A DNA stretch of 64,000 nucleotides. Origin: Spirodela intermedia (taxonomy: Eukaryota > Streptophyta > Magnoliopsida > Alismatales > Araceae). The stretch is taken from the NCBI GenBank assembly GCA_902729315.2, contig LR746273.1, forward strand, positions 4,813,001-4,877,000, read 5' to 3'. Below, one piece after another: positions 468 to 60,989 of this stretch (the first letter of the stretch is position 1; each line of letters begins with the position of its first letter). Under the pieces are notes generated by a model. The model saw only the letters and a list, made by a program, of their open reading frames with translations. It had not been told where the DNA came from and ran no database searches. A program made the translations under genes and the position numbers.

Positions 468-2963
468 TTGCTAAATTTTCCCTCAAATTTATTGATTTTT
501 ATGCATGGTAGAAGATCCTTGCATCCAAGGCTAGAAAGTCCTTTCATTATTTCATTCAAAAATAAAGATGCGAAAGAAAAATTAATTTTGATAGATCCTG
601 AAGGAAGTACAAGTCAAACTGAGAACAATCCTATGGCCATGAAAAATTATTATATCCCTGATTCATTTCAAAGAGCATCCAATATTAGAGTCCCATTAGC
701 ACCCAATGTTAAATTCGAAATAAATCTAGGAATTTTTCAAATGCTCCCTAATTTTCATGGATTGCCTTTAGAAGAACCTCATCAGCACTTAGAAAAATTT
801 CATTTGGTCTGTGATTTAGTTAATCTCCCTCAAGTTACACCGGAAATTATTAAGATGAAATTATTCCCTCATACACTTAGGGACAAAGCTAGCCATTGGC
901 TATCCACATTAGATAGAAAATTAACTAGCTGGAAAGATATAGAACAAGCCTTTCTTCGAAAATTTTATCCCTTAGGAAAAACTCAAAATATAAGAAAACA
1001 TATATGGAGTTTTTCTCAAAGACCAGGAGAAACTTTGCATGAGACATGGGAAAAATTCAAAGATTTACTTATAAAGTGTCCTTATCATGCTATACCCAAG
1101 TGGCAGCTCAATAGAATTTTTTATGATGGATTATTAGAACAACATAGAAATATGGTTGATTCTATATATAGAGGAGCTTTTATGGGGAAAACCCCTAATG
1201 AGATTTATAGTCTTTATGAGAATTTAAGTGAAAATTCTAGAGATCAAGCCTCTTTTGAATTATATGACAGGGATATGAAGAGAGGAATTTATGAATTGTA
1301 TCATGATGATGATTCTAAACTTAGAAATGAGGTTAATCAGATTAATCAAAGATTAGAAAAACTTGACTCACTTATTGACAATATTAGAAAGCCTCTTAAC
1401 CCTCAATTTAATTCAAATAGTACAGGTCCTACGTATGGTGAAAATGATCATTTCGAATTTCAATATCAGCATAGACAAGAACAAGTGCAGGTACCCCACG
1501 ATTTTAGTAAAAATAGAGAATATTTTTCTAATTCTTAAAATCCTAATTAGGGGAATAATTTTTCGTTGAGAAACCCAAATAATTCTCAAAATCCAAAAGC
1601 ACTTAGATCCAATTCACATTTTGAATTTCGTCCAAAATAGGAACATAGATTTCAGAAAAATCACTCCTCTCAAATCCAACCTAATGCTATGGAAATGATG
1701 CAGCAAATGAGCCAAATGATCCAACAAACTATGAATCAAATGATTCTGCACCAGAAACAAATTATAGAGGCTCTTGGGAATAAGAGAGAAGAGGGACAGC
1801 CACCTAGTCAGCCCATAGAAAATCTAAAAAACTGTCCAACAGTAAGATTTCAGCAAGGAGAGTCTAGCTAGATAAATTTAGAAAAAAACCCACGAAATGA
1901 AAATGTTAGGTCAGTGAATACATTGAGTGAGAATATTTTACATGATCCTTATTTCCAATTATTAGAAGAAATCGATGAGCCATTAGAAGTAAATGAGAAT
2001 ATTAATGCTGAAAATATAGTAGGAGAAAATTTGAATAAAATCATTTATTGTTCACAATTGATGAATAAATATAGTGAGGATGATGAGGAGAAAAAGCCCT
2101 TAGATAAAGAAACAGCAGCTGATCATGGAAAAATTATCCAAATTTTAGTAGAAGGGAGTAAGGACACAAATGAAGAAAAACATATTTCAGGTGAGGAAAA
2201 ATCAGCTGATTTGGGAGATGTAGGAGATGAAATTAATAAATCTAATCATAATTTTCCAGCCATGGATGTTGATGATGATGTATATCATATACCGAAATTA
2301 AAAGATAGCTCTTGGGAAGATGAAGAATTTGATGAGTTGAGAAACGAAAAACTAGAAAAAGAGTTGATTCAACTAATGAGGAGAAACGAAAATAATGGAT
2401 ATGAATATAGAGATAATTTTCGAGGAGAAAATTTGAATTTTACTGAATTCATTAGATCTGAGATTAAAGAAGACAATCCTTCCATCCTTCAAAACCCACA
2501 GCTCATTAGAATTATTTCTAAACTTGAAATATTTCACTCGCAAATTGAACAAATATATATGGAAGATAAAATGGAGCAGGGGAAGATTATGAAGATAAAA
2601 TAACACATTAAGAAATGGGTGAGTGGAAGAATTAGAGATATCAATTTAGATGAAAAAATTATAGATTGGGTAAGAGCTAATTTGAAAATTATATGGCCTG
2701 ATCACATTTTATGGTCTATTAATAGAAAGTATTTATTAATGAATGAGAGCCTTACAAAACAAGATAGAAATGAAGAAAGATTCTTTTCAAAATGGAAATT
2801 TTATTTTTGGGAAAATTTTGTTAATTTCCATTTTATTTTGGCTGAAAGTATGTCAAGATATATATATGAAGTATATGAATTTATGCTAAATCTGAAAAAG
2901 AATATCATGAAACTTACCTTGGGATACAAATATATTTTGATGGCCATAGATCATCTTATATGA
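468..2963 (+). pseudogene. gag plus acidic ORF, single frame with stop codons (element A)
   Basis: All open pieces between 468 and 2963 lie in one frame, interrupted only by stops near 1538, 1640, 1871 and 2603, so the ancestor was one polypeptide of about 830 residues. The first 350 or so residues are Athila-type gag: a retrotransposon gag core with an EEPHQHLEKF motif, LFPHTLRDKASHWL, and a later GETLHETWEKFKDLL segment. A Met/Gln-rich probable coiled coil follows (about 1689-1790). The remainder is acidic (many DDE and EE runs) and ends in a basic, Trp/Phe/Tyr-rich domain (2619-2963). No CCHC knuckle and no pol motif is visible. Gag would form the particle; the role of the acidic part is unknown. 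The first Met is uncertain. Confidence 0.85.
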
Positions 2964-7069: not shown

Positions 7070-7288
7070 CAGAAGCTGAGGCCTCCATGAACCTGATGCA
7101 ATGTTGATAATGTCACATCTACAAACATTACCAGTAGAGATATCACGAGAAAGTTAAGTCTCAAGGGACACTAAGAGAATGGTAGTCTTCACAAGGCAAG
7201 CTATATCCTTTGGAGAGGGTAGATGAAAGCTTGGATTTTGCCATCCTTGGAGTGACAAGTCAATGTTACGTTCACCTAAAAAGGTGGG

Positions 7289-8890
7289 TGACGTGACTTA
7301 GTCGTTGTATAGTAAATCACGCATATTTAAAATTTATAAAACTAGAAAATACGAATTTTTAGATATTTAGAAGTATTTCTGAACAAATATATCAATTATA
7401 ATTCAATAAAAGTTCCACAAATAGCGGTAATTTTCCAAGTCAATCATAGGGATGTAATATAATATCTGGTAATTATTCAGAATTTTTCTCAAAGAATATT
7501 ATTTTCTATGAATTTTATACTAAGAAATGAAAAGGAAATATATTTAAAATTTATAAAAAAGGGAAATAAGGGTGCGGATGTCATGATGATGTCAGTGCCC
7601 GGTGAATGTGAATCCGGCGGAAATAGAGTTCCGCCTGGTGATTCTTACGTAACTAATTATAGACGATTTAATTGATCAAATTAAGATTTATAAAAGCCGG
7701 AAGAATCGTAATGAAATGAAGTATATCTTGGTAAATTTAAAATCAACAAATTATCACTAAATGAAACGAAAATTAAGTTGAAAGCAAGAAAACAGAGTTT
7801 TGGCATCGTGGCAGCGATGGGTTGACGATGCACCAGAATCTTGAGCGTTCCAGAGGATTGTCATGCAGTATCCACGGCCTCGAAAGCTCTCCTTGGACAA
7901 AGATGACGTGGACAATCTCTAGATCTCTTTACAAAGTCTAGAGATTAATGAAATGGGTTGTCGAATCGTCTTCGGCGGCTATCATCTGGCGGAGCGGAAA
8001 AATGGTGACTTTGCAGCTCTCTGATGGCTATCATCTGACGGAGAAGAGCTAAATGGAGGTGGGGCCCGTGTTAGGGAGCTTCATCCTTAAATCCGTGCAG
8101 CAAGAGTTGGCTCTTCATCACATCTAGTACGCTCTCAGGAGGTGGCGACTCATCTCCCGGCAGATCGTCCTCTTCTTGATGACAGCTTGTTCGTCGATCA
8201 ATCGGAGATGCTTTACTCGATGGATTCACAATCTTTTTATCGCGAATCATTCAGCAATTTTAGTAACAATACTCCACGAATCGCATTGACGAGATTTTCA
8301 CTGGTGATTTGCAAGAAAGTCGTGATAATCAGATAAAAAATATGAATTTTGGCTCTGGGAGGATTCGAACCCGCCCGGTTGCCCGCCCTTTTTGGAGAGG
8401 GTGTGACGCAGGTTTAGTCCCACATCAATTGTGCGTCAAAATTTCAGGTAAATATATAGTAATATTATATTTTCGATCAAGTCTCTTTCTCACACGTGTA
8501 CGACCACTCCTTGCCCCACAGCTGGCTGGCCACCGGTGATGTGGAAGGGAGGTGGCATGCACATACCCCTATTGGTCCAAGCTACTCGAGCCCCTACTCA
8601 TGGCTACTCCTCGACTGCGCTTCCGACCCGCTTGTGGGCCTGGCTGGTCGGCGGGTCCCCCCCATTTTGTCTTATTTTTATTTTTATTTCTTTTTCTTCA
8701 GTTATCTCAAAAGTAAAACTGTAAAAATCATATAAATTAGTATAAAATCAAATAATTACCCAAAAATTCACATTAATTAATTGAAAACCACTTTTCACAC
8801 TTTAACACAAATATAAGTCTATTTATCATGAGTTAAGGCTAAAACTATATTATTTATTAATTATTAGCTTATGATAGTGAAGACTTATCA
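7289..8890 (-). repeat. Solo LTR of the Athila-like family (TSD GTGGG)
   Basis: A complete LTR in inverted orientation, from TGACGTGAC to ACTTATCA, with GTGGG on both sides (7284-7288 and 8891-8895). No internal sequence is present, so it is the product of LTR-LTR recombination. The paralogous site near 56869 reads GGTGGGATACTCAG without the insert, an empty site that confirms both boundaries. Confidence 0.95.
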
Positions 8891-10491: not shown

Positions 10492-11209
10492 CTACAACAT
10501 CAGAGCGGCTGCGATTGTTGTCAACGCAAAGGTGGCAGCGACCGCGGCTGTTCCGAGGGTTGCAGAGGGCGCCGCCCCGGGAACTCCGGGTGCCGAACCA
10601 GAAGGTCCGGGGGTGGAGGACGTTGGAGGGCTAGCAACAGTTGTGGGAGGTGTTGGTGCTCCGGAGGAGGTCGGGGATGGCGGGGTGGCCGAAGGGGTGG
10701 AGGCCGCCGCCACTGTGAGAGTCATCTTCTGGCCTGCACTACAGTGACCATTGACGCCGCAGATGAAGTATCTGGTGCCCGCTGCAGTGAGTTCCACGGT
10801 GGCCGGGCCGGTGGTGTACGTGGCGATGGGGTTGGACGTAGTGCAGTCGTCGTAGTTCGCCCTCGTCACCTCGAGCACGTCGTGGGCACCGTTGTTGAAG
10901 TTGAAAACTGCAGAGGGGCAGGATCAGGGAGTTTGATTAGAGTGCTCTGGGGCGCACTATTAGAGATTGAGATGATGCTAAGAAGCTGAGAGGAATGAAG
11001 GAACGGAGAGACTGAAGATGCTGCCTACCGAGAGAATCGCCGACAGCGAATGTCTGCCTGCTGGCCCAGTCAGTGTAGTAGCTGGGACTGGATGGGATGC
11101 TCCATATCTGGTTGTCCCCTACCTCGAATGTGGCCGCGAGCGCGCCCGTGGCGGCGTAAACCACGACGAGGATGAAGAAGGGAAGTGCAGAGGACGAAGA
11201 TGAGGTCAT
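10492..11209 (-). CDS. Stellacyanin-like phytocyanin (blue copper protein, GPI-anchored), two exons
   Basis: Exon 1 is 11209-11029 and exon 2 is 10907-10492, with a 121-bp GT-AG phase-1 intron after GDSL, the usual phytocyanin intron place. The spliced product is 198 residues. Residues 1-25 are a signal peptide ending ALA; the plastocyanin-like domain is about 27-126. Copper ligands by spacing are His69, Cys110, His115 and Gln120 (HCSAGQK); Gln as axial ligand is the stellacyanin type. Cys82 and Cys116 fit the conserved disulfide. A Pro/Ser/Thr-rich arabinogalactan-like stretch (about 127-175) leads to a hydrophobic C-terminus typical of a GPI signal. It probably acts as a small electron-transfer or signalling protein at the outer plasma membrane. 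No internal stop or frameshift is seen. The redox role is family knowledge, not shown here. Confidence 0.93.
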
Positions 11210-11399
11210 GCTTGTTGGTCGCTGTTGTCTGAGAAGAAACAGTTCTTCGTGTGTTCTGCAGGTCGCCCTTGCCCACAGCCCTCGCAGCCCCCTCCTTCCC
11301 CTGAGTCCACACAGACACAGGATCGCGCAAAGCGGAGAGAAGAAGGGTAGATGGGAGTTCGTGAGGGGGGGATGAGGAATATATGCGTGTGCGGGGCTG

Positions 11400-11407
11400 C
11401 TTTTATA
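11400..11407 (-). promoter_or_regulatory. TATA box of the phytocyanin gene
   Basis: On the minus strand this reads TATAAAAG, about 190 bp upstream of the start codon at 11209, a reasonable place for a plant core promoter with a 5' leader of roughly 160 bp. Confidence 0.6.
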
Positions 11408-11409
11408 GT

Positions 11410-11854
11410 GAGAGCCAACGGCAGAGGGAGGCATTCGGAGAAAAATAATAGATCGATCGATTGAGGGCTGACCGAGGAGGAGAGGGGGAACAGAAACATC
11501 GTTGACCGGGAATAGGATGCTTCTTCGATGCCATGTTCTTCTAGAACCGCCGGATTTGGGGGAAGTTTTCTTACGTTTTCCTATACAGATCGGGTCAAAT
11601 CTAAAATATACGCGCGGGAGACGCGTGATGGAGTCCTCGTTCGGCTACGTCGCGCGTAACAAACACTCCAGGGCTGACCAGTTCCAATATCCGCCCGGTA
11701 AAAGCGACCGGACTCTATCTCCATCGTCTCTCACTTCTGTTCTCTACATCGTCTCTCATTCTTCTGTTCTCCCCACTTCTCGTGCATGTGGATTACCAGC
11801 TGCCTTCTGCGGGAAAACGCGGGAGGGAGTTGGTGAAGTGAGTGGACAAAGACG
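11410..11854. other. Divergent intergenic region
   Basis: GC-moderate sequence between the leftward phytocyanin and the rightward MADS-box relic. It probably holds both promoters. Open frames here are short and I recognise no protein. Confidence 0.4.
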
Positions 11855-15363: not shown

Positions 15364-16178
15364 CCAAGGGCATCAACAAGATCATCCTCTAGTGTAAATG
15401 TTACCTCATTTTCATGGGATGAGTCATGAAGAACCTTATAAGCACTTAGACGAAATTTCTCAAAGTTGTGTGAAATCTCAAATTATCCTAATGTGTCTAG
15501 TGAAGTGGTGAAGATGAATGTGTTTTCTTTTACTCTTAAGGACAAAGCTAAAGATTGGTTTAGAGCTCTAGCTCAAGAGTTAAATTCATAGAGTGAAATG
15601 GAAGTAGCCTTCTTAATTTTTTTTTATTATATTGATAAAACTAATGCCATTAGAAAGGCAATTAGAGATTTTGTGTAGGGAGCTCAAGAATCATTTTTTG
15701 AAACATGGGAAAGAATGAAGGAGTATAATTGACAGTGCCCCTTCATGGGATTTATAATTGGTAACTTGTTTAGATTTTTTAGGAAGGGCTGAATGACAAA
15801 GACTGACATGTGATAGATGCAGCCAGCAAAGGTGCTTTTATGAATAAGTATGATCATGAAGCTTCTGACTTGATTGAAATGATTGCAGAAAATAGTGCAC
15901 ATCACGTGGCTTTAAACCAAAATGGACAAGGTCTTGGGCCTAGAAGATATATTTATGACTCGAAATCATTTGAGAGAGTTTTCCTTTTAGATAAACTAGA
16001 TAAATTAATGGAATGTGTCAATAATTTAATGAATGGTTCTACAAGTGATAATTTAAATTCTGAGCCATCTCCTATTGAATTTGAATTACCAATTTGTGCA
16101 CTTTGCTCTAGTCATGAACATGTAGAATTGAACTTTCCTAGATATAATCAAGCCATGGCAATGAATGATAGTTTCTGA
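15364..16178 (+). pseudogene. gag of element F (broken)
   Basis: Broken frames give HFHGMSHEEPYKHLD, then FFETWERMKEY, then an open part from 15810 (122 codons) with the gag motif DAASKGAFMNK. The Athila-type gag order is clear. A possible knuckle-like stretch CALCSSHEHVELNFP has lost the final Cys. Confidence 0.75.
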
Positions 16179-16743
16179 AAAATAAAAAGTTCAATCAGTA
16201 TACATGGAGCAATAAGAAGAGCCATAATAATAATTTTATAAAGGATGCAGGTAATTCTTATTATTCTGCTCTAAATCATCAAGATTTCTCTTCACATCCG
16301 AGGCAACATTTTCAAAGTTCTAGTTATGCACATGCTTATCATCAAGGGAGCATGAAACTAAGTAGTGCAAAAGGATGATTCTGTGACTATTAATGAGCTC
16401 TTGAAGTAATTGTTGCAGGGGAAGAAAGCTATGGAATTAAAACAGCAATAAATTATACAAGAAACGAAGAGAATGAAGATCAAAGTTGACAGCCAGCACC
16501 AAGAACTCTCAAGGCTAGAGGAAAACAAAGGTAAAAGGGAAAATTCGAATTATAATGGTTGAGACAAGTAAATTTTCCACTCAACCAATAGTTAATCCTA
16601 AACATATGACTAATTCTTCTTAGCATCAAATTCATCATGTAGAATCCAAGGATAAAGATTTTGAAACATTACATGCTATTTCAAAATTAAGGAATGGAAA
16701 AAATTTACCTGATCCACATAGAGAGAAAAGAGAAGAAAACAAT

Positions 16744-17613
16744 TTGGAGTATGAAGAAAAACAAGATAAAGAAGATCAAGAAACCGTAGATATATGTAAT
16801 AAGGAGGGTAGAGAGGTAAATCTCAAAAATTATAAATCTCCAATTCCTTTTCTTGAAGCCTTGCAAAAATTTAAAAATAAACCTAATACCCTTGATGATC
16901 ATCTCATGGATCTTTTCAAACAAGTAAATACTAATATTCCTTTTATTAATATTATTAAGCACATTTCTTCATATGATAAATTTTTAAAAGGATTATGTAG
17001 AGAGTATCTGAGACAATAAGTTCTAAATTATTTAATCATATTCTTGAAAAGCGTAGATATCTCAGAGCACCACTTATCACTTGTGAGATTAAAGGTATTC
17101 TTTTTACTAGATCTTTACTTGATTTAGGTGCTAGTGTGAATATACTACTAAAAAGCTCTTTATGATAAATTTAAATTCAGTGATTTACAATCAATTATAG
17201 TAGAGTTTCAATTAGCTGATGGGTTGATTAGACAATCATGTAGAATTCTTGAAGATGTGATAGTAAAAATAGAAAGTTGGTATTTTCCCGTAGATTTTAT
17301 TGTTGCTGATATGAAAATGAATGATAATATTACTCATACTCCCATCATTTTGGGTAGGCCATTCTTAACAATAGCCAAAACTACAATGGATTGGGGGAAG
17401 GGAATGGTAGAATTAAAATTTGGGCATGAAAAAGTTGAAATAAAAATTTCTAAGTTGATAAAATATGTTGAGAATTTCATTGAAGATTGTAATCATATTG
17501 ATTTATCTGATGAATGTGTTGATGATAATTTTCTTTGTATGACTTCTATTCTTGATCCTCCACAAGTTTTAACCGAAAAAAATATCTTACCTAATGATGA
17601 AGAAAAACATTAA
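16744..17613 (+). pseudogene. gag C-terminal part and protease of element F (broken)
   Basis: An acidic and Lys-rich region (16744-17019) reads SPIPFLEALQKFKNK. Then comes an aspartic protease with LLDLGASVNIL near 17107 (the DLGAS form typical of Athila) and a downstream open frame from 17224 with HTPIILGRPFLTIAKTTMDW. A frameshift near 17155 separates the two protease parts. The end runs towards the RT start (LKPLPSTLKHAFLG, after a stop). Confidence 0.8.
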
Positions 17614-25433: not shown

Positions 25434-27931
25434 TCATATAAGATGATCTATGGCCATCAAAATATATTTGTATCCCAAGGTAAGTTTCATGATATTCTTT
25501 TTCAGATTTAGCATAAATTCATGTACTTCATATATATACCTTGACATACTTTCAGCCAAAACAAGATGGAAATTAACAAAATTTTCCCAAAAATAATATT
25601 TTTGTTTTGAAAAGAATCTTTCCTCATTTCTATCTTGTTTTGTAAGGCTCTCATTCATTAATAAATACTTCCTATTAATAGACCATAAAATGTGATCAGG
25701 CCATATAATTTTCGAATTAGCTCTTACCCAATCTAAATTTTTTTCATCTAAATTGATATCTCTAATTCTTCCACTCACCCATTTCTTAATGTCTTCTTTT
25801 ATCTACATAATCTTCCCCTGCTTTATTTTATCTTCCATACATATTTGTTCAATTTGTGAGGAGTGAAATATTTCAAGCTTAGAAGTAATTCTAATGGGCT
25901 GTGGGTTTTGAAGGATGGAAGGGTTGTCTTCTTTAATCTCAGATCTAATGAATTCAGTAAAATTCAAATTTTCTCCTCCAAAATTATCTCTATATTCATA
26001 TTCATTATTTTCGTTTCTCCCCATTAGTTGAATCAACTCTTTTTCTAGCTTTTCGTTTCTCAACTCATCAAATTCTTCATCTTCCCAAGAGCTATCTTTT
26101 AATTTCGGTATATGATATACATCATCCTCCTCACTATCAACATCCATGGCTGCAAAATTATGATTAGATTTATTAATTTCGTCTCCTACATCAACTGATT
26201 TTTCCTCACCTGGAATATGTTTTTCTTCATTTGTGTCCTTACTCCCTTCTACTAAAATTTGGATGATTTTTCCATGATCAGCTGCTGTTTCTTCATCTAA
26301 GGGCTCTTTCTCCTCATCATCCTCACTATATTCCTTTATCAATTGTGAGCAATAAATGATTTTATTCAAATTTTCTGCTACTATATTTTCAGCCTTAATA
26401 TTCTCATTTACTTCTAATGGCTCATCAATTTCTTCTAATAATTGGAAATAAGGATCAAGTAAAATATTCTCACTCAATGTATTCACTGACCTAACATTTT
26501 CATTTCGTGGGTTTTTTTCTAAATTTATCCAATTAGACTCTGCTTGCTGAAATCTTACTGTTGGACAGTTTCTTGAATTTTCTATGGGCTGACAAGGTAG
26601 CTGTCCCTCTTCTCTCTTATTCCCAAGAGCCTCTATAATTTGTTTCTGGTGTAGCATTATTTTATTCATAGTTTGTTGCATCATTTGGCTCATAACTTGT
26701 TGCATCATTTGGCTCATTTGTTGCATCATTTCTATAGTACCAGGTTGGGTTAGAGAGGGCTGATTTTTCTGAAATCTGTTTTCTTGTTTTGGACAAAATT
26801 CAGAGTTTGAATTGAATCTAAGTGCTTCTAGATTTTGAATATTATTTGGGTTTCTCCACGAAAAATTATTCCCCCAATTAGGATTATAAGAATTAGAAAA
26901 CTATTCTCTATTTTACTAAAATCGTGGGGTACATGCACTTGTTCTTGCCTAGGATGATATTGAAATTCGAAGTGATTATTTTCACCATACATAGGACATG
27001 TACTATTTGAATTAAATTGAGGGTTAAGAGGGTTTCTAATATTGTCAATAAGCAAATCAAGTTTTTCTAATCTTTGATTAATTTGATTAACCTCATTTCT
27101 AAATTTAAATTTATTATCATGATGCAATTCATGAATTCCTCTCTTCTTATCCTTATCATATAATTCAAAAGAGGCTTGATCTCTAGAATTTTCACTTAAA
27201 TTCTCATAAAGACTGTAAATCTCATCAGGGGTTTTCTCCATAAAAGCTCCTCCACATATAGAATTAACCATATTTCTATGTTGTTCTAATAATCCATCAT
27301 AAAAAATTCTATTGAGCTACCACTTGGGTATAGCATGATGAGGACACTTTCTAAGTAAATCTTTGAATGTTTCCCATGTCTCATGTAAAGTTTCTCCTGA
27401 TCTTTGAGAAAAATTTCATATATGTTTTCTCATATTTTGAGTTTTTCCTAAGGGATAAAATTTTCGAAGAAAGGCATGTTCTATGTCTTTCCAGCTAGTT
27501 AATTCTCTATCTAATGTAGATAGCCAATGGCTAGCTTTGTCCCTAAGTGTATGAGGAAATAATTTCATCTTAATAATTTCCGGTGTAACTTGAGGGAGAT
27601 TAACTAAATCACAGACCATATGAAATTTTTCTAAGTGCTGATGAGGTTCTTCTAAAGGCAATCCATGAAAATTAGGGAGCATTTGAAAAATTCCTGGATT
27701 TATTTCGAATTTAACATTGGGTGCTAATGGGACTCTAATATTGGATGCTCGTTGAAATGAATCAGAGATATAATAATTTTTCATGGCCATAGGATTGTTC
27801 TCAGTTTGACTTGTACTTCCTTCAGGATCTATCAAAATTAATTTTTCTTTCGGATTTTTATTTTTGAATGAAATAATGAAAGGATTTTCTAGCCTTGGAT
27901 GCAAGGATCTTCTACCATGCATAAAAATCAA
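25434..27931 (-). pseudogene. gag plus acidic ORF (element B, broken)
   Basis: The gag part (27931 to about 26830) has stops near 27418 and 27318 (Trp codons changed) and a frame change near 26900. The second part is open from 26729 to 25803 (308 codons), starting with a Met/Gln repeat MMQQMSQMMQQ and going into the acidic region with EEDDVYHIPKLKDSSWEDEEF. One stop near 25803 separates the C-terminal 114 codons (25778-25434), which carry DWVRANSKIIWPDHILWS. The match to A and D along the whole frame shows that this region was under coding constraint. Confidence 0.85.
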
Positions 27932-28111
27932 TAAATTTGAGGGAAAAATTTAGTAATTGTTACCCTCCTTCAGGATGCTCCAGTCCTTGCCTTGCTTCTT
28001 TTCGTTCCCTTTTTCTAAAAAAAATCGGCAAAAAAAAAATAAAACAAGAGTTAAATTTTTTTTGTGTCCTCTAAGAGAAAAACAGAAAATACTAAATATT
28101 ATGCAATACAT

Positions 28112-30790: not shown

Positions 30791-30963
30791 ATAATATTTA
30801 GTATTTTTCTGTTTTTCTCTTAAAGTACACAAAAAATATTAACTCTTATTTTATTTTCTTCTTGTCGAATTTTTTTTTAAAAAAAAGGAACAAAGAGAAG
30901 CAAGGCAAAGACTAGAGCATACTAAAGGAGGGTAACAATTATTAAACTTTTTTTTCAAATTTA

Positions 30964-32430
30964 TTGATTTTTATGCATGGTAGAAGATCCTTGCATCCAA
31001 GGCTAGAAAATCCTTTCATTATTTCATTCAAAACTAAAAAACTGAAAGAAAAATTAATTTTGATGGATCTTGAAGGAAGTACAGGTCAAATTGAGAACAA
31101 TCCTATGGCCATGAAAAATCATTATCTTCATGATTTATTTCAAAGAGCATCCAATATTAGAGTCTTATTAGCACCCGCCATTAAATTTGAAATAAATCTA
31201 GAAATTTTTCAAATGCCCCTTAATTTTTATGGATTCCCTTTAAAGGAACCTCATCAGCATTTAAAAAAAATTCATATGATTTGTGATTTTGTTAATCTCC
31301 CTCAAATTACACCGAAAATTATTAAGATGAAATTATTTCCTTATACACTTAGGGACAAAGCTAGTCATTGGCTATCCACATTAGATAGAGAATTAACTAG
31401 CTGGAAAGATATAGAATAAGCCTTTCTTTGAAAATTTTATCCCTTAGAAAAAACTCAAAATATGAGAAAATATATATGGAGTTTTTCTCAAAAACTAGGA
31501 GAAACTTTGCATGAGACATGAGAAAAATTCAAAACTTTAGTTAGAAAGTCTTCTCATCATGTAATACCTAAGTGGTAGCTCAATAGATTTTTTTATGATA
31601 AATTATTAGAACAACATAGAAATATAGTTGATTCTATATGTGGAGGAGCTTTTATGGAGAAAACCCCTCATGAGCTTTATAGTCTTTATGAGAATTTAAG
31701 TGAAAATTTTAGAGATCAAGCCTCTTTTAAATTATATGACAAGGATAAGAAGAGAAGAATTTATGAATTGTATCATCAAAATGATTCTAACTTACGAAAT
31801 GACGTTAATCAAATTAATCAAAGATTAAAAAAACTTAACTTATTTATTGACAATATTAGAAAGTCTCTAAACCCTCACTTTAATTCAAATAGTACATGTC
31901 CTATGTATGATGAAAATAATTATTCTGAATTTCAATGCTATAATTTAGATCAATCATTTCACCCTATGCAAGAATAAGTGTAAGTAGTTCACGGTTTTAA
32001 TAGAAATAGGGAGCCTTTTTAAAATTCTTATAATCCTTATTGAAGAAATAATTTTTCATAGAGAGACCCAAATAATATTCAAAATCCAAAAGCACCTAGA
32101 CTCAATTCAAAATCTGAATTTTGTCCAAAATAAGAAAATAAATTTCAGAAAAATCAGCCCTCTCAAATCCAACCTGATGCTATGAAAATGATGCAGCAAA
32201 TGAGTCAAATGATGTAACAAACTATGAATCAAATAATGTTGCAGCAGAAATAAATTATAGAGGCTCTTGAGAATAAGAGAGAAGAGGGACCACTACCTAA
32301 GCTCATAGAAAATCTAGGGAACCGCCCAACAATAGGATTTCAGCAAGGAGAGTCTAGTAACATGAATCTAGGAGAAAACTCACGAAATGAAAATGTTAGG
32401 ACAGTGAATGTATTAAGGAGTGGGAAGATT
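30964..32430 (+). pseudogene. gag of element E (broken)
   Basis: The first frame is open to 31419 and matches gag of A, B and D nearly residue for residue (RASNIRVLLAPAIKFEIN, LRDKASHWLSTLDREL). Many stops follow, with another open piece from 31654 (107 codons). The Met/Gln region is near 32180. The C-terminus near 32362 reads NENVRTVNVLRSGKIL, an Athila gag-to-protease junction motif. In A, B and D the matching place changes to NTLSENIL. Confidence 0.88.
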
Positions 32431-32632
32431 TTATTTAATATTTATCTCCAAACATTAGAAGGAGAACGTGGACAGCCCAAAACAAAATCAAATAGGAGTA
32501 GAAGAAGATTTTATAGATTATATCAAGGAAATTCTAAAAGAGAGGACAACCATTCCATTTCCTAAAGCTCTAGAGCCTAGACAAAGAAATAAAAAAGAAC
32601 ACAATTAAGAAATAAATAAAATTTTACAAGAA

Positions 32633-33160
32633 GTGCGAATTAGTCTTCCTTTACTCACTATCACTAAATATATTCCTAAATATGTTAGAATTTTGAAAGA
32701 AATGTGTATACCAAAAAAACCACCTAGAGTAGAAAAATTATCTATGCATGCTAGTGCTTTATTATTTAATCAATTACCATATAAATTGAGAGATACTAGT
32801 GCCCCTTTAATTTCATGTGATATTGGTGGATCTATTTTTCAGAATGTATTACTTGACACCAGTGCTAGTATTAATTTATTACCTACAAATATTTGTGATA
32901 AATTTAATATTGCTGATCTTAAACCTTCTACTGTTACCTTAAAATTTACTGATAGATCCATAAAATATCTTAAAAGTACTTTAGAAAATAAGATAGTGAT
33001 AGTTAAAAGGTGTAAATTTCCAACTTATTTTGTAGTACTGAAAATGTATTTTAATAGACAGTTTTATGATACACTAATCATTCTAGAGAGACCATTTTTA
33101 CATACAGTAAAGATGAATATTGATTTTCTCACAGGTATTGCGAAAATTTCATGTGGAGAT
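32633..33160 (+). pseudogene. Aspartic protease region of element E, truncated at its 3' end
   Basis: Open for 176 codons: PKYVRILKEMC, then VLLDTSASINLLPTNICDKF holding the active-site Asp (DTSA where most families have DxGA), then TLIILERPFLHTVKMNIDF. The frame ends where the LTR of element D begins, so the RT it should lead into is absent. Confidence 0.88.
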
Positions 33161-34792
33161 TGATAAGTCTTCATTATCATGAGTTAATAATTAGTAAATA
33201 ATATAGTTTTAGCCTTAACTCATGATAAATAGACTTATATTTGTGTTAAAGTGTGAAAAGTGGTTTTCAGTTGATTAACGTGAATTTTTGGGTAATTATG
33301 TGATTTTATACGATTTTTACAATCTTACTTTTGAGATAAATGAAGAACAAGAAATAAAAATAAAAATATTGCAAAATGGGGGGACCCGCCGGCCAGCCGA
33401 GCCTGCAAGCGGGTCGGAAGCACAGTCGGGAGTAGCCGCGAGCAGGGACTCGAGTGGCTTAGCTTGGACTGATAGGGGCACATGTGCGCCACTCCCCTTC
33501 CACGTCACCGGTGGCCAGCCGGCTGTGGGGCAAGGAGTGGTCGTACACGCGAGAGAAGTGACTTTGCTTCCGAAGCTAACATTACTATATATTCGCCCGA
33601 AAAATCGGCGCACAACCGATGTGGGACTAAACCCGCGTCACACCTTCCTCACAGGCGGGCGACCGGCGCGGGTTCGAATCCTCCCAGAGTCAAAATTCAT
33701 ATCTTTTTATCTGATTATCGCGACTTTCCTGCAGATCGCCGGTGAAGGATTAAGCAACCAGAATCGCTGGATCATCGGCGAAAATCTCGTCAACGCGATT
33801 CACGGAACATTGCTACTAAAATTGCTGAACGATTCGCGATAAAAGGATCGCGAATCCATCGAGTAAATGATCTCCGATTGATCGACGAACAAGCCGTCGT
33901 CAGGAAGAGGACGATCCGCCGGGAGACGAGTCGCCACCTCCTGAGAGCGTACCAGATGCGATGAAGAGCTTCCTCTTGCTGCGCGGACCTGAGGATGAAG
34001 CTCCCTGACACGCGCCCCACCTCCATCCAGCTCCTCTCCGTCGGGTGACAGTCGCCGGAGAGCCGCAAAGTTGCCATTTTTCCGCTCCGCCGGGTGACAG
34101 CCGCCGGAGACGATTCGACGACCCACTTCATTGATCTCTAGACTTCGCGAGAAGATCTAGAGATTGCCCACGTCGTCTTTGTCCAAGGAAAGCCTTCGAG
34201 GCCGTGGACACTGCACGACGATCCTCCCGAACGCTCAAGATTCCGGTGCATCGCCGACGCATCGTCGTCGCGACGCCGGAACTCTATTTTCCTGCTTTCA
34301 ATTTACGTTACGCTTCATTTAGTGATAATTTTTGTGTTTTTAAGTTACCAAAATATACTTTGTTCAATTACGATTCTTTCGGCTTTTACAGATCTTAATT
34401 TGATTAATTAAATCATTTGTAATCGCTTACACAAGAATTGCCGAGCGGAACTCTGTTTCCGCCCGATTCGCGTTCGCCGGGCGCTGACGTCATCTTGACG
34501 TCCGCGTCCTTATTTCCTTTTTTTTCGTGAATTTTAAATATATTTCCTTCTTATTTCCTAGTATAAAATTCATAGAAAATCGTATTCATTGAGAAAATTT
34601 CTGAATAATTACCAGATATTATATTACATCCCTGTGATCGACCTGGAAAATTACCGCTATTTTTGGAATTTTTATTGAATTATAATTGATATATTTATTT
34701 AAAAATACTTCTAAATATCCAAAAATTCGTATTTTCTAGTTTTATAAATTTTATATTTGCGTGATTTAATATACAACGACTGAGTCACGTCA
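33161..34792 (+). repeat. 5' LTR of element D (complete, 1632 bp)
   Basis: It runs from TGATAAGTC to CACGTCA. It shows the family features at their clearest: TTATCATGAGTTAA/TTAACTCATGATAA arms (33174-33187 and 33215-33228), TATATAT near 33585, the B-box-like GGTTCGAATCC near 33670, and the perfect GATTCGCGAT/ATCGCGAATC hairpin (33831-33856). Confidence 0.95.
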
Positions 34793-34797
34793 AATTT

Positions 34798-34814
34798 TGG
34801 CGCCATTGCCGGGG
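34798..34814 (+). other. Primer binding site, tRNA-Asp type (element D)
   Basis: TGGCGCCATTGCCGGGG, one change from the complement of the tRNA-Asp 3' end. Confidence 0.88.
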
Positions 34815-34989
34815 ATGTATTGCATAATATTTAGTATTTTTCTGTTTTTCTCTTAGAGTACACAAAAAAAATTTAACTCTTGTTTTATTTTCTTTTTGCC
34901 GATTTTTTTTAGGGAACGAAAAGAAGCAAGGCAAGGACTAGAGCATCCTGAAGGAGGGTAACAATTACTAAATTTTTCCCTCGAATTTA

Positions 34990-37468
34990 TTGATTTTTAT
35001 GCATGGTAGAAGATCCTTGCATCCAAGGCTAGAAAATCCTTTCATTATTTCATTCAAAACTAAAAATCCGAAAGAAAAATTAATTTTGATAGATCTTGAA
35101 GAAAGTACAGGTCAAACTGAGAAAAATCTTATGGCCATGAAAAATTATTATATCCCTGATTCATTTCAAAGAGCATCCAATATTAGAGTCCCATTAGCAC
35201 CCAATGTTAAATTCGAAATAAATCCAGGAATTTTTCAAATGCTCCCTAATTTTCATGGATTGCCTTTAGAGGAACCTCATCAGCACTTAGAAAAATTTCA
35301 TATGGTCTGTGATTTAGTTAATCTCCCTCAAGTTACACCGGAAATTATTAAGATGAAATTGTTCCCTCATACACTTTGGGACAAAGCTAGCCATTGGCTA
35401 TCCACATTAGATAGAGAATTAACTAGCTGGAAAGACATAGAACAGGCCTTTCTTCGAAAATTTTATCCCTTAGGAAAAACTCAAAATATGAGAAAACATA
35501 TATGGAATTTTTCTCAAAGACCAGGAGAAACTTTACATAAGACATGGGAAACATTCAAAGATTTACTTAGAAAGTGTCCTCAGCATGCTATACCCAAGTG
35601 GCAGCTCAATAGAATTTTTTATGATGGATTATTAGAACAATATAGAAATATGGTTGATTCTATATGTGGAGGAGCTTTTATGGAGAAAACCCCTAATGAG
35701 ATTTACAGTCTTTATGAGAATTTAAGTGAAAATTCTAGAGATCAAGCCTCTTTTGAATTATATGACAGGGATAAGAAGAGAGGAATTCATGAATTGCATC
35801 ATGATAATGAATCTAAACTTAGAAATGAGGTTAATCAGATTAATCAAAGATTAGAAAAACTTGATTTACTTATTGACAATATTAGAAAGCCTCTTAACCC
35901 TCAATTTAATTCAAATAGTACAGATCCTATGTATGGTGAAAATGATCATTTCGAATTTCAATATCATCCTAGGCAAAAACAAGTACAGGTACCTCACGAT
36001 TTTAGTAAAAATAGGGAATATTTTTCTAATTCTTATAATCCTAATTGGGAGAATAATTTTTCATGGCGAAACCCAAATAATATTCAAAATCTAGAAGCAC
36101 TTAGATCCAATTCAAACTCTGAATTTCGTCCAGAACAAGAAAACAGATTTTAGAAAAATCAGCCCTCTCAAACCCAACATGATACTATAGAAATGATGCA
36201 GCAAATGAGCCAAATGATGTAACAAACTATGAACCAAATGATGCTGCACCAGAAACAAATTATAGAGGCTCTTGGGAATAAGAGAGAAGAGGGACAGCCA
36301 CCTAGTCCGCCCGCCCATAGAAAATTCAGGAAACTGTCCAACAGTAAGATTTCAGCAAGGAGAGTCTAGCTGGATAAATTTAGAAAAAAACCCACGAAAT
36401 GAAAATGTTAAGTTAGTGAATACATTGAGTGAGAATATTTTACCTGATCCTTATTTCTAATTATTAGAAGAAATCGATGAGCCATTAGAAGTAAATGAGA
36501 ATATTAATGCTGAAAATATAGTAGCAGAAAATTTAAATAAAATAATTTATTGCTCGCAATTGATGAATGAATATAGTGAGGATGATGAGGAGAAAGAGCC
36601 CTTAGATGAAGAAACAGCAGCTGATCATGGAAAAATCATCCAAATTTTAGTAGAAGGGAGTATGGACACAAATGAAGAAAAACATATTTCAGGTGAGAAA
36701 AAATCAGTTGATGTAGGAGACGAAATTAATAAATCTAATCATAATTTTGCAGCCATGGATGTTGATAGTGAGGAGGATGATGTATATCATATACCGAAAT
36801 TAAAAGATAGCTCTTGGGAAGATGAAGAATTTGATGAGTTGAGAAACGAAAAGCTAGAAAAAGAGTTGATTCAACTAATGGGGAGAAACGAAAATAATGA
36901 ATATGAATATAGAGATAATTTTGGAGGAGAAAATTTGAATTTTACTGAATTCATTAGATCTGGGATTAAAGAAGACAACCCTTCCATCCTTCAAAACCCA
37001 CAGCCCATTAGAATTACTTCTAAGCTTGAAATATTTCACTCCTCATAAATTGAACAAATATGTATGGAAGATAAAATGGAGCAGGGGAAGATTATGCAGA
37101 TAAAAGAAGACATTAAGAAATGGGTGAGTGGAAGAATTAGAGATATCAATTTAGATGAAAAAAATTTAGATTGGGTAAGAGCTAATTCGAAAATTATATG
37201 GCCTGATCACATTTTATGGTCTATTAATAGGAAGTATTTATTAATGAATGAGAGCCTTACAAAACAAGATAGAAATGAGGAAAGATTCTTTTCAAAATGG
37301 AAATATTATTTTTGGGAAAATTTTGTTAATTTCCATCTTGTTTTGGCTGAAAGTATGTCAAGGTATATATATGAAGTATATGAATTTATGCTAAATCTGA
37401 AAAAGAATATCATGAAACTTACCTTGGGATACAAATATATTTTGATGGCCATAGATCATCTTATATGA
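34990..37468 (+). pseudogene. gag plus acidic ORF (element D, nearly intact)
   Basis: Gag is open for 387 codons (34990-36153) with the retrotransposon gag core and a stop (CAG to TAG) at 36151. A 4-bp insertion near 36317 changes frame. The acidic region is then open from 36272 apart from stops near 36460 and 37045. The C-terminal part (37064-37468) is open for 134 codons and joins the acidic part to the basic, aromatic domain (KKWVSGRIRDINLDEKNLDW). With A and B this supports one ancestral protein of about 830 residues. No catalytic motif is visible. The downstream half has no recognised family. Confidence 0.88.
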
Positions 37469-39069: not shown

Positions 39070-40711
39070 TGATAAGTCTTCATTATCATGAGTTAATAAT
39101 TAGTAAATAATATAGTTTTAGCCTTAACTCGTGATAAATAGACTTATATTTGTGTTAAAGTGTGAAAAGTGGTTTTCAGTTGATTAACGTGAATTTTTGG
39201 GTAATTATGTGATTTTATACGAATTTATCTGATTTTTACAATCTTACTTTTGAGATAAATGAAGAAAAAGAAATAAAAATATTGCAAAATGGGGGGACCC
39301 GCCGGCCAGCCGGGCCCGCAAGTGGGTCGGAAGCGCAGTCAGGCGTAGCCGCGAGCAGGGGCTCGAGCGGCTTAAGCTTGGACCGATAGGGGCACGTGTG
39401 CGCCACTCCCCTTCCACGTCACCGGTGGCCAGCCGGCTATGGGGCAAGGAGTGGTCGTACACGCGAGAGAAGGGACTTTGCCTAAAAAGCTAACATTACT
39501 ATATATTCGCCTGAAAAATCGGCGCACAACCGATGTGGGACTAAACCCGCGTCACACCTTCCTCAGAAGGGGGGGCGGACAACCGGCGCGGGTTCAAATC
39601 CTCCTAGAGTCAAAATTCATATATTTTTATCTGATTATCGTGACTTTCCTGCAGATCGCTAGTGAAGGATTAAGCAACCAGAATCGCTGGATCATCGGCG
39701 AAAATCTCGTCAACGCGATTCGCGGAGCATTGCTACTAAAATTTCTGAACGATTCGCGATAAAAGGATTGCGAATCCATCAAGTAAATCATCTCCGATTG
39801 ATCGACGAACAAGCCGTCGTCGGGAAGAGGACGATCCGCCGGGAGACGAGTCGCCACCTCCTGAGAGCGTACCAGATGTGATGAAGAGCCTCCTCTTGCT
39901 GCACGGACCTGAGGATGAAGCTCCCTGACATGCGCCCCACCTCCATCCAGCTCCTCTCCGTCGGGTGACAGCCGCCGGAGAGCCGCAAAGTCGTCGTTTT
40001 TCCGCTCCACCGAGTGACAGCCGCCGGAGACGACTCGACGACCCACTTCATTGATCTCTAGACTTCGCGAGAAGATCTAGAGATTGCCCACGTCGTCTTT
40101 GTCCAAGGAGAGCCTTCGAGGCCGTGGACACTGCACGACGATCCTTCCGAACGCTCAGGATTCCGGTGCATCGCCGACGCATCGCCGTCGCGACGCCGGA
40201 ACTCTGTTTTCCTGCTTTAAACTTACTTTACACTTCATTTAGTGATATTTCTTTGTAATTTTAATTTACCAAAATATACTTTGTTCTATTACGATTCTTC
40301 CGGCTTTTACAGATCTTAATTTGATTAATTAAATCGTCTATAATCGCTTACGTAAGAATCGCCGGGCGGAACTCTGTTTCCGCCCGATTCGCGTTCGCCG
40401 GGCGCTGACATCATCCTAATGCCCGCGCCCTTATTTCCCTTTTTCGTGAATTTTAAATATATTTCCTTCTTATTTCCTAGTATAAAATTTATAGAAAATC
40501 GTATTCATTGAGAAAAATTCTGAATAATTACCAGATATTATATTACATCCCTGTGATCGACCTGGAAAATTACCGCTATTTTTGGAAGTTTTATTGAATC
40601 ATAATTGATATATTTATTTAGAAATACTTCTAAATATCCGAAAATTCGTATTTTCTAGTTTTATAAATTTTATATTTGCGTGATTTAATATTCAACGACT
40701 GAGTCACGTCA
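39070..40711 (+). repeat. 3' LTR of element D (complete, 1642 bp)
   Basis: It runs from TGATAAGTC to CACGTCA. It carries the hairpin CGGGCGGAA/TTCCGCCCG (40363-40386) and a full-length antisense open frame (39627-40046). Confidence 0.95.
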
Positions 40712-40726
40712 CTAACCATCATTCTA

Positions 40727-42086
40727 GATTGAGTGATATAGGAATAAATGTATCACCTTTACAAGATTTATTTCTAGATGAACAATTGATGACAGCTCAA
40801 CATCAACCATCACCATGGTATGCACATATTGTTAATTTTCTTGTTTCTGAAAAAATTACAAAACAGTGGGATAAGAATATAAAACATCATTTCTTTTTTA
40901 AGATTAGAAATTATTTTTGGCATAATCTTGATTTATATTATTTGGCCAATGATCAAATTTTAAGGAGATGTGTTCTTGAAGAAGAATATCATAGCATTTT
41001 TAACATATGCCATTCATCTAACTGTGGAGGACATTTCTCTATACGAAAAATAACTACAAAAAATTTTCAGTGTGGTTTTTATTGGCCTACAATCATTAGA
41101 GATTCTATAAAATTTAGTATAATATGTATTTCATGCCAATCTATAGGTAACATGAGTAAAAAAGATAAAATGCCCATGAGTAACATGTTAGTCGTTGAAA
41201 TTTTTGATGTATGGGAAATAGATTTCATTGGTCCCTTCCCATCAAGTGAAAAATATGAATATATTTTACTTGTCGTTAATTATGTATCTAAGTGGGTGGA
41301 ACCTATTTCTACTAGAACTAATGATCATAAAATCGTGATGAAATTTTTGTAGGAAAATATTTTTTCAAGATTTAGATGTCCTAGAGTGATTATTAGTGAT
41401 GGAGGAACACATTTTATAAATTTCAGAGAACTGTTGAAAAGAATGGAGTACACCATAGAGTAGCCACTCCATACCATCCCCAAACAAATGGGCCAGCTGA
41501 AGTAGCAAATAGGGAAATTTAGAGAATTTTAGGAAAAATAGTTAGACTAGATAGAAAAGATTGACCCACGAAATTACAAGATGCATTGTAAGCTTATAGA
41601 ACAACTTATAAAAATCTCATAGGTATGTCTCCATTTCGTCTCATTTTTGGAAAGTCATGTCATCTTCTTGTGGAAATAGAGCATAAAGCATTATGGGCTA
41701 TAAAAAATTTATGTATGGATGAAGAATCAATTGGTGGGCATAGAATTTTTCAATTACATGAACTAGAGGAATTGAGGAATGAAGCTTATGAAAATCATAG
41801 AATATATAAAGAAAAAACTAAACCTTTTCATGATAAATACATTAGTAGAAAAAGATTTGATGTTGCACAAAAAGTGTGGTTATATGATTCTACGCTAAAA
41901 TTATTCCCAAGAAAATTAAAATCAAAATGGACAAGGCCTTATGTGGTGGAAGAGACATATAATCATGGGGCTGTAATGATTAAAGATCCTAAAAGTGATC
42001 CTAACTTTAAGGTAAATGGACAATGGCTTAAACATTATATAGAACATGAACACCTTGTAGAAAATGAAATTTTATTATTAAAATAA
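40727..42086 (+). pseudogene. RNase H-integrase linker and integrase of element E (broken)
   Basis: Open for 207 codons from 40729, then a stop at 41350, a frameshift near 41425, further stops, and open again from 41625 to 42086 (153 codons). The zinc-binding HHCC set is present (CHSSNCGGHF and CISCQSIG). The catalytic core has Asp in EIDFIGPFP, Asp in VIISDGGTHF and the region of the third residue in TNGPAEVANREI, so the D,D,E triad is still readable. The C-terminal part reads [20 protein letters not shown] and ends in VNGQWLKHY. This is a standard Athila integrase, which would insert the cDNA copy in the nucleus. Confidence 0.92.
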
Positions 42087-58808: not shown

Positions 58809-60086
58809 ATGGCATCAACGAAGGTGGAGCATCATCAACTCGATAGGAAGACAAATTTTATGTTATGGCAAATCAAGATGCCGGCCGTTTCAGCCCAGCT
58901 TGATCTGGAGGATGCTCTCTTTCTCACAATGCCACAATCATGGGATGAGGATAAAAAGAAATGAGTCAACCGCAAGGCCTTAATCTAAATTCAATTATAT
59001 CTCTCGAATGACATCCTACGCGACATCAAGAAGGAGACTAAGGCTTATAAATTATGACAGAACCTCGAAGAGTTATATATGGCTAAAACCGTCACTCAAT
59101 GAAACTTAACCAAGCAGCAATAATTTGGTCTTCGTATGTCAAAAGGTACTCCATTAGAATCTCATCTTGTCCTATTTAAATATATACTCACAGAGCTAGA
59201 GGCTCTAGATGTTAATACTCTTATTGACGAAGACCTATGTTCCCTACTACTTATGTCACTTTCTGCATCTTATCCAAGCTTCTGTGATATTTTATTTTAT
59301 GGGTCAAAAGAGCTTTCTTTGGAAGTTTTATATGAATCACTTTCTACGAAAGAAAGTATGAGTAAATTTGTAGATTCTTCGTCGTCAACTCCAGTGGAAG
59401 GTCTTCTAATCCGTAGGCATGACCCAAAAAGAATGTCAAAACAAGGATCAAGAGGAAGGTCTAAGTTTCAAAATCTTGATAAAACCTACATTTACTGCAA
59501 AAATAAGGGTCACATCAAGTATGAATGCTATAAGCTTCAAAACAAAAACAAGAGGGAACAATCTTGCTCAGAGTCTCATCCACCATCTGATCAATCAGCT
59601 GCTACAAATGTCACTCAAAGCTCTGATTCTGGTGAATTGTTTGTTGTCGCTGAGTTTGAGTCAAAATCTTCGGATGAATGGATTATTGACTCTGCATGCA
59701 CATTTCATGTCTGCTTCAAACACGACACTTTTTTGACATACACTCCATCAACCGAAGTCATCTTAATGGGCAACAACTCATCTTGTAAAATTGAAAGGAT
59801 TGGGAATCTTTCCCTCAAAATATTTGATGGGAAAATCCACACTTTAAGTAATGTTCGACATGTTCTAGAACTGAAAAGAAATCTCATTTCACTAAGCACG
59901 ATTGACTCCCAAGGCTACCCTTTTATCAGTGATGATAGTATCTTGAAGGTATGTAAAGGGGCCCTTGTTGTGATGAAAGGACATCAAAAAATAGCAAACC
60001 TATATGTTCTTGAAAGGAGTACATTAATGGGTGATATTACCATTACAACCTCCTCCTTACCTACACAAGAGAAAACTAGATTATGA
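58809..60086 (+). pseudogene. copia-2 gag and protease (broken)
   Basis: The gag start at 58809 reads MASTKVEHHQLDRKTNFMLW, then several stops up to about 59130, then open from 59136 to 60086 (316 codons). The zinc knuckle has lost its first Cys (YIYCKNKGHIKYEC). The protease has WIIDSACTFHVC, with the DSA active site common in copia, and ends in the pre-integrase region VRHVLELKRNLISLSTID. It would form the particle and process it. Confidence 0.92.
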
Positions 60087-60989
60087 CATTCGATTGGGAC
60101 ATATGGGAGAACAAGGGTTGGCTGAGCTAAGTCAACGAGGTCTAATTGATGAACTTAAGTCAAAAAATTTAGAATTATGTGAGCATTGTATTTATGGCAA
60201 ACATGCTCATTTTAGCTTTTCAACAAGTCAACACAAATCAACAAGAACTTTAGACTATCTTCACTCAGATCTACGAGGGCCAATAAGTGTTCCATCCCAT
60301 GGTGGTGCTTTATATATGTTAACTTTCATCGATGATTATTCAAGAAAGGTATGAGTATATTTCTTAAAACAAAAATCTGATGTTTTTCATCACTTCAAAG
60401 AATGAAAGTTTCTCATCGAAAAATAAACTAGCTGATGTATCAAGGTTCTTCGAACTAACAATGGGATGGAATTCTGTTCACATCAATTTATTAATTTTTG
60501 TAAGTCTGAAGAAATATTACTTCATCTTACCATCCATCACACACCACAATAAAATGGTGTAGCGGAGTCCATGAATCAAAAGATTCTTGAGAAAGTGTGA
60601 TGTCTTCTCTCCAATGATGCTCTACCAAAATCCTTTTGAGCAGAAGCTGCCTTTATGACAGCTTTTATCTTATCAATAGATCTCCGTCAATTGTCATTGG
60701 AAAGAAAACTCCACAAGAGATATGGTCTAGTCCTCCCCCTAATTACTCTTTTCTTAAGGTCTTTGGATGCCCAAACTATGTTCATGTCAACAATGGGAAG
60801 CTTCAACCACAATTAATTAAATGTATATTTCTTGGATTTAAGCCAAGAGTCAAGGGATATAAATTATATCATCTTGAGAATCGAAAAATTATCTACAACA
60901 GTGACGTTATCTTTGATGAATCTCCCCTATTGAAGACATCCAAGTCAGACCAAGTTTCAACTCTTGAAAACTTGCCTGAACAAGATTAG
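60070..60989 (+). pseudogene. copia-2 integrase (broken)
   Basis: RLGHMGEQGLAELSQRGLI and CEHCIYGKHAHFSF hold the HHCC zinc site. The core reads LHSDLRGPISVPS with the first Asp and TFIDDYSRKV; later pieces read NGVAESMNQKILEK with the Glu, and WSSPPPNYSFLKVFGCPNYV near the C-terminal end. Stops occur near 60354 and at several later places, with frame changes. Confidence 0.9.

What the first reader, a model, noticed from the sequence alone, without database searches (positions are those of the whole stretch)
34990..37468. Pol replaced by a conserved acidic ORF in a gag-carrying non-autonomous retrotransposon family
A (468-2963), B (27931-25434) and D share one frame of about 830 codons: Athila gag, a Met/Gln coiled coil, a long acidic region, then a basic and aromatic C-terminal domain with DWVRANSKIIWPDHILWS. 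There is no protease, RT, RNase H or integrase. Three copies keep the same frame with only scattered stops, which suggests the ORF was selected while the family was mobile. Non-autonomous LTR elements usually have no ORF, or a gag or partial pol only; a new coding domain in place of pol is unusual. The domain could help gag, recruit the helper's enzymes, or be a captured host sequence.
Basis: partly seen in the sequence, partly recalled or inferred. Interest (0 to 1): 0.85.

Follow-up and report, generated by a model that had tools for sequence, protein, structure and literature searches.

The report
Gag-only Athila partner with pol remnant
A common duckweed retrotransposon that lacks its own enzymes keeps a capsid gene fused to a strongly altered tail, which looks like a leftover of the lost enzyme gene rather than a new gene, and it has taken fresh surrounding sequence from an enzyme-carrying partner.

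Summary
A, B and D are decayed copies of one pol-less LTR element (NON): gag joined in frame to a module of about 334 codons, acidic then basic and aromatic. Of 150 scored genomic copies, 16 keep the whole 840-852-codon frame open. The host is very probably Spirodela intermedia clone 8410.

The helper (AUT) was found: a 1778-codon gag-PR-RT-RH-IN frame with the same LTR, gag and 3' UTR; only pol is swapped for the module.

The module is probably not a new or captured domain. Its start, a C-terminal motif and its last residues match, in order, the RNase H end, RNase H-integrase connector and integrase core start of pol. The likeness is weak but beats most controls.

Variants shared between copies show modest purifying selection on the module (omega-like 0.63, p 0.008; private variants 1.06). 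Young NON copies carry a NON cassette inside AUT-like backbones; trees conflict across about gag codon 430.

Pol-less Athila families with selected gag that recombine with helpers are known (Marco & Marin 2008), as are TR-GAG elements. Verdict: new variant of a known kind.

The parts
33161..34792 (+). 5' LTR of element D
   Evidence: 93.5% identical to 39070-40711 over 1650 columns, begins TG, ends CA
34799..34815 (+). presumed primer binding site of D
   Evidence: GGCGCCATTGCCGGGGA directly after the LTR; that Athila elements carry such a site is recalled
34999..36153 (+). gag of D (first ATG to first stop), with PF03732
36461..37468 (+). module of D in place of pol (acidic part, then basic/aromatic C-term); one internal stop at 37046-37048, and out of frame with the first part of gag
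39070..40711 (+). 3' LTR of element D
468..2963 (+). copy A: gag plus module (module from about 1959), one frame with 5 stops
25434..27949 (-). copy B: gag plus module (module from about 26441 down to 25434), one frame change and 4 stops
30946..33160 (+). copy C, a decayed pol-carrying partner: gag and protease region, cut at the left end of D
   Evidence: matches L039:5194-5361 at its end
40712..42086 (+). RH-IN connector and integrase of a pol-carrying partner directly right of D, perhaps the rest of C
   Evidence: matches L039:7050-8547; ORFs

Best explanation
D is an old, broken copy of a high-copy, pol-less Athila-type LTR retrotransposon (TR-GAG type) of Spirodela intermedia. SHOWN: it shares LTR, leader, gag and 3' UTR with a pol-carrying partner; pol is absent and a module of about 334 codons is fused in frame to gag; a minority of copies keep the whole frame open; young copies have a NON cassette (end of gag plus module) inside AUT-like sequence with gag of at least two AUT types. 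SUPPORTED, modestly: variants passed on between copies show a deficit of amino-acid changes in the module. INFERRED, likely: the module is what is left of pol after two losses, one removing protease, RT and most of RNase H, the other the integrase core; the remnant (RNase H end, RH-IN connector, integrase start) then changed almost beyond recognition and its connector became longer and acidic. INFERRED, how it works: NON RNA is packaged into particles built from Gag of one or both partners and is copied and inserted by the partner's RT and IN in trans; co-packaging lets RT switch templates, which renews the NON backbone from the active partner. Because the partner has Gag and Pol in one frame (which makes them 1:1 unless it has some other way to make Gag alone), Gag made by NON might also supply the extra Gag that particles need, the tail being tolerated or used as a Gag extension.
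For: Helper with one 1778-codon frame, gag to integrase; about 97% identity of L041 and L039 outside pol/module. Intact copy L041 has a 5-bp target-site duplication, TCTGT, and LTRs 97.9% identical. Pol relic: pol-connector HMM ranks NON41 1st, B 2nd, D 4th of 3003 with 3000 shuffles; C-term ranks 1st of 1001 against whole pol; 754 natural segments reach at most 4.4 bits against 11.0 (L041), 10.7 (B), 8.8 (D), and in 870 six-frame pieces of the window the best pieces after four real pol pieces are the C-terms of A, D and B; three matches in pol order by profile comparison. Selection. Exchange: gag codons 209-380 join the 16 listed young NON with 21 AUT rows without the 11 listed old NON (99.9/100), codons 400-505 make all NON one clade (100/100); the same module haplotype occurs with both AUT gag types.
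Against: The pol likeness rests on short stretches: hhalign probabilities are only 33, 13 and 7%, the two acidic parts are not significant (rank 28 and 637 of 1001) and the whole module ranks 2nd; a low-threshold chain test did not separate it (11 of 400 and 29 of 400 shuffles as good); 3 of 3000 shuffles equal the skew-limited chain; copy L025 lacks the strong connector match. DNA comparison shows no match between module and L039 pol. The end of gag beside the module differs from AUT by up to 22% per 60-base bin, far less than module and pol do, so the module would have to be older than its present flank or have evolved fast. Selection p values are modest and uncorrected; some subsets are not significant. 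No expression, packaging or trans-mobilisation was tested.
Confidence: 0.65

Rival explanations
1. Captured sequence: the module comes from a host gene or an unrelated mobile element, taken up by read-through and template switching, and its likeness to pol is chance.
For: The matches to pol are short and weak; no DNA-level match to pol; the acidic middle matches nothing.
Against: No relative at E <= 1 among 2999 and 1704 candidates except P0121, a fragmentary S. intermedia gene model of the same element, while the same database gives 4920 pol relatives. A host gene with introns or one much diverged could have been missed, since the own-genome search scores only the 150 best places, all element copies by their identity.
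Confidence: 0.2
2. Neutral leftover: the ORF after gag has no function; the frame is open only because copies descend from few recent source elements.
For: p values are modest; gag 400-513 shows no constraint (0.91); variants shared by 5 or more copies give 0.68, p 0.092; the C-term alone is not significant once C>T/G>A are left out.
Against: Module omega-like 0.63 for shared against 1.06 for private variants (Fisher p 0.029), no stop among 71 variants shared by 5 or more copies against 12 of 182 private ones (p 0.017); pairwise 0.46-0.48 between intact L041 and the diverged intact L016 and L025.
Confidence: 0.15
3. The module is an env-like ORF joined to gag after loss of pol.
For: Gag+env elements without pol are common among Arabidopsis Athila (PMC2410132, Results read).
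Against: No Pfam match at E <= 5; no membrane-span-like stretch (best 19-residue mean hydropathy 0.78); no ORF of 110 aa or more after pol in the fetched part of L039 and L040.
Confidence: 0.04

Closest known systems
Pol-less Athila families of Arabidopsis (Marco & Marin 2008, PMC2410132; abstract, Results and Discussion read)
   Same: Athila-type elements with LTRs and intact gag (or gag and env) but no pol, ORFs under purifying selection, thought to be mobilised in trans, recombining with pol-carrying families, even inside gag.
   Different: Here gag is fused in frame to a pol-like altered tail, and pol-less and pol-carrying elements share LTR, gag and 3' UTR at about 97%; the paper says it never saw pol-less elements within pol-carrying families. 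Constraint measured here (0.5-0.65) is weaker than the omega values of its table (mostly about 0.2-0.4); the methods differ.
TR-GAG elements (Chaparro 2015, not held, recalled and cited in PMC8704663, PMC9784723 and PMC6022998, of which passages were seen)
   Same: Two LTRs, one ORF with a GAG domain, no pol domains; a TR-GAG of ATCOPIA63 was seen to transpose in ddm1 and has a similar autonomous relative (PMC8704663 passage).
   Different: The ORF runs about 334 codons past gag with a conserved module.
LTR swapping between soybean partners (Du 2010, recalled, not read) and Onsen recombination during bursts (PMC5668417, abstract read)
   Same: Recombination between family members renews old or non-autonomous copies; template switching as in retroviruses.
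   Different: Here a fixed cassette (gag end plus module) stays and the sequence around it is replaced.

Membership tests
TR-GAG (non-autonomous LTR elements with GAG) | two LTRs and a target-site duplication | tested here: met
   D has two LTRs but unequal flanks GAGAT/CTAAC; intact copy L041 has LTRs 562-2467 and 6816-8727 and TCTGT on both sides
TR-GAG (non-autonomous LTR elements with GAG) | an ORF with a GAG domain and no RT, RH or IN domain | tested here: met
   Pfam on both pieces of the L041 ORF
TR-GAG (non-autonomous LTR elements with GAG) | mobilised in trans by a helper | not testable with these tools
   a helper with matching LTRs exists; mobilisation needs experiment
Athila lineage of Ty3/gypsy | RT/IN phylogeny placing the helper with Athila | not tested
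   no RT tree with named references was built; helper domains and order are gypsy-type and Athila is the main gypsy lineage reported for this genome, 7.23% of the 8410 assembly (PMC7645714 passage)
Athila lineage of Ty3/gypsy | Athila-type primer binding site | tested here: inconclusive
   GGCGCCATTGCCGGGGA after the LTR of D; the expected motif is recalled
Pol-derived protein (RH-IN connector) | profile similarity at the right places and in pol order | tested here: inconclusive
   significant in most shuffle and natural-segment controls, but short, with low hhalign probability and no usable structure model (pLDDT 35.9)
Athila env | env family match or membrane span | tested here: not met

The most novel reading that the evidence does not exclude
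The pair is a split, two-part retrotransposon: the partner makes Gag-Pol in one frame and the pol-less element makes most of the Gag, with the pol connector re-used as a selected Gag tail; the cassette is kept by selection while RT template switching renews everything around it.
Probability: 0.2. Interest if true: 0.72.

Novelty: new variant of a known kind. Interest (0 to 1): 0.42.

Why it matters
It gives a clean helper/derivative pair in a small genome, both with intact copies, so the old question whether gag-only elements are parasites or Gag suppliers becomes testable. It also suggests how an orphan ORF in a mobile element can be a pol remnant changed beyond routine recognition, and how a cassette can outlive its backbone through recombination.

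Tried and rejected
Host capture: two protein searches gave nothing outside the element. Env: no Pfam match and no membrane-like stretch. Structure: AlphaFold2 on an alignment of 13 natural module sequences gave mean pLDDT 35.9, so no fold search was run. PDB sequence search with that alignment: none at E <= 5. A chain test with a low threshold was uninformative and was replaced by one with a higher threshold. An early reading that the 3' UTR beside the module is 5% diverged between L041 and L039 was an alignment effect and is withdrawn. The 3' tree for bases 700-1500 was not usable because L043 sat on a very long branch (829 of 1618 columns filled). One search treated minus-strand loci wrongly and was redone. 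The tree (gag codons 209-505), which split AUT and NON cleanly, mixed two histories and was superseded. Paper searches; the one aimed at an orphan ORF in place of pol listed one paper, on Mutator elements. I saw no report of such a module, but most subscription papers are not held.

Full report
WHAT IS THERE. The window lies at C10:4813001-4877000 of a 136,496,439-base genome whose contig C9 has 13,401,826 bases. The published S. intermedia clone 8410 assembly has 136.6 Mbp, 18 pseudomolecules and a largest scaffold Si09 of 13.4 Mbp (PMC7645714, passages), so I take that as the host (inference). D has LTRs at 33161-34792 and 39070-40711, 93.5% identical. Its ORF begins at 34999 with gag and ends at 37468. 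A and B are sister copies. A keeps one frame with five stops; B and D have four stops each and change frame once.

COPIES. The C-terminal piece of D has 548 first-look places, of which 150 were scored; all 150 match at 80-100% identity. With the L041 piece, 16 of 150 scored copies have a complete open frame of 840-852 codons; two of these 16 are a 72-kb duplicate pair. The first-look totals are not confirmed copies. In these 16 the gag hit and the C-term hit lie 1698-1746 bases apart, so no pol lies between.

THE HELPER. Gag hits with much longer open frames led to L039 and L040, each with one frame of 1778 codons. In L039 Pfam finds gag, a protease below its cut-off, RT, RNase H, zinc-binding domain and integrase core in that order. 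Of 150 scored RH-IN hits, 3 have a frame of at least 1770 codons. L041 and L039 share LTR, leader and gag up to L041:4196 and everything compared from L041:5211 on at about 97% identity; between these L039 has 3.8 kb of pol and L041 1.0 kb of module. The Met/Gln coiled coil is on the shared gag side.

WHAT THE MODULE IS. Pfam gives no convincing match and PDB sequences none. Two searches of 5.8 billion proteins give only P0121, a S. intermedia gene model with gag and a piece of the acidic region. The same database returns 4920 pol relatives, so plant retroelements are covered. A weak match of the C-term to pol (1 of 500 shuffles as good, but 18 of 500 for the whole module and 126 of 500 for the acidic part) was followed up with a profile made from the 120 listed pol relatives. 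NON41, B and D rank 1st, 2nd and 4th among 3003 sequences of which 3000 are shuffles. Against whole pol the C-term ranks 1st of 1001, the two acidic parts 28th and 637th, and the whole module 2nd. The best single match is reached by 0 and 1 of 3000 shuffles (full and local), the colinear chain by 1 and 0, the skew-limited chain by 3 and 3; a low-threshold chain was uninformative. Among 754 natural segments the best is 4.4 bits against 11.0, 10.7 and 8.8; among 870 six-frame pieces of the window, the first after four real pol pieces are the module C-terms of A, D and B. Profile-profile comparison places the module start (LLEEID...NVVAENLNKI) at the RNase H end, RNKERFFSKWKYYFWE in the RH-IN connector and GYKYILMAID at the integrase core start, in pol order, with probabilities of 7, 33 and 13%. 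These are the start, the C-terminal motif and the end of the module, as expected if two losses left the connector. Each match alone is weak, and the copies are not independent. I put the relic reading at about three in four.

SELECTION. 69 sequence rows gave 51 after 18 duplicates were dropped; L055, a different genomic place identical to L005 over the shared part, was among those dropped. L017, a duplicate of L016, was dropped too, leaving 50. Private variants look neutral (omega-like 0.97, 1.05, 1.02 and 1.15 for gag 209-400, gag 400-513, acidic part and C-term). Shared variants give 0.64, 0.91, 0.74 and 0.48, and the module as a whole 0.63 (p 0.008 against neutrality; 0.029 against private variants). 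Without C>T/G>A the module gives 0.57 (p 0.021), but the C-term against its own private variants is no longer significant (0.302). Variants shared by 3 or more copies give 0.65 (p 0.034), by 5 or more 0.68 (p 0.092) with no stop among 71 (p 0.017). Pairwise dN/dS in the module between intact L041 and intact L016 and L025 is 0.48 and 0.46; five other pairs printed run from 0.51 to 0.70, and L008-L041, with only 12 changes over a part of the module, gives 2.35. Selection on the source lineages is therefore likely but modest.

RECOMBINATION. In gag codons 209-380 the 16 listed young NON copies sit with 21 AUT rows to the exclusion of the 11 listed old NON (99.9/100); each is 0-7 differences in 516 from an AUT copy. 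In codons 400-505 all NON form one clade (100/100) and differ from AUT by up to 22% per 60-base bin. On the 3' side young NON group with L039 and L040 in the first 600 bases, with moderate support (91/71) and few AUT rows (3); L041 matches L039 closely from about 10 bases after the stop codon. L043 and L047 have the same module haplotype at 17 diagnostic sites but different AUT gag types, and so do L050 and L049; exchange between NON copies could add to this. So a cassette from about gag codon 430 to the stop sits in young AUT-like backbones, with at least two gag types. Template switching between co-packaged RNAs would give this (known for retroviruses; Onsen, PMC5668417, abstract).

COMPARISON. 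Marco & Marin (PMC2410132; abstract, Results and Discussion read) describe Athila families in Arabidopsis without pol, with intact gag or gag+env under purifying selection, thought to be mobilised in trans, and recombining with pol-carrying families. TR-GAG is the general name (passages of PMC8704663, PMC9784723 and PMC6022998). What is added here is the fused, pol-like, selected tail and the fixed-cassette pattern of exchange, with partner and derivative sharing LTR and gag.

VERDICT. The anatomy is real; the 'new domain' is more likely an old part of pol; the system is a known kind with an unusual twist.

Noticed in passing
genome C11:7.22-7.55 Mb: 15 module hits with the same open-frame length (147) and similar stops, mostly 20-28 kb apart, most with an RH-IN hit about 6 kb before: a long tandem array of a unit that holds both element types.
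   Followed up: no
genome C4:3736804/3808902; C16:1074148/1180481 and 1096085/1202378; C1:11388975 and C6:10092309: Duplicated hit pairs 72.1 kb and 106.3 kb apart, and one pair lying the same 77.9 kb from the ends of C1 and C6.
   Followed up: no
window 33156-33160 and 40712-40716: D has no target-site duplication (GAGAT/CTAAC); its left flank matches the helper's protease region and its right flank the RH-IN connector, so about 1.7 kb of pol is missing between.
   Followed up: partly
L041:1542-1973 and 7801-8232; L039:2133-2420: The LTR holds a 144-bp tandem unit that varies in number, three in each LTR of L041 and two in the 5' LTR of L039.
   Followed up: no
window 10492-11644 (-): Open stretches that look like a plastocyanin-like (phytocyanin) host gene, by recall only.
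   Followed up: no
window 15807-17613 and 59124-60989: A second gypsy-type gag-protease relic of a different family, and copia-type gag-integrase stretches (naming recalled).
   Followed up: no
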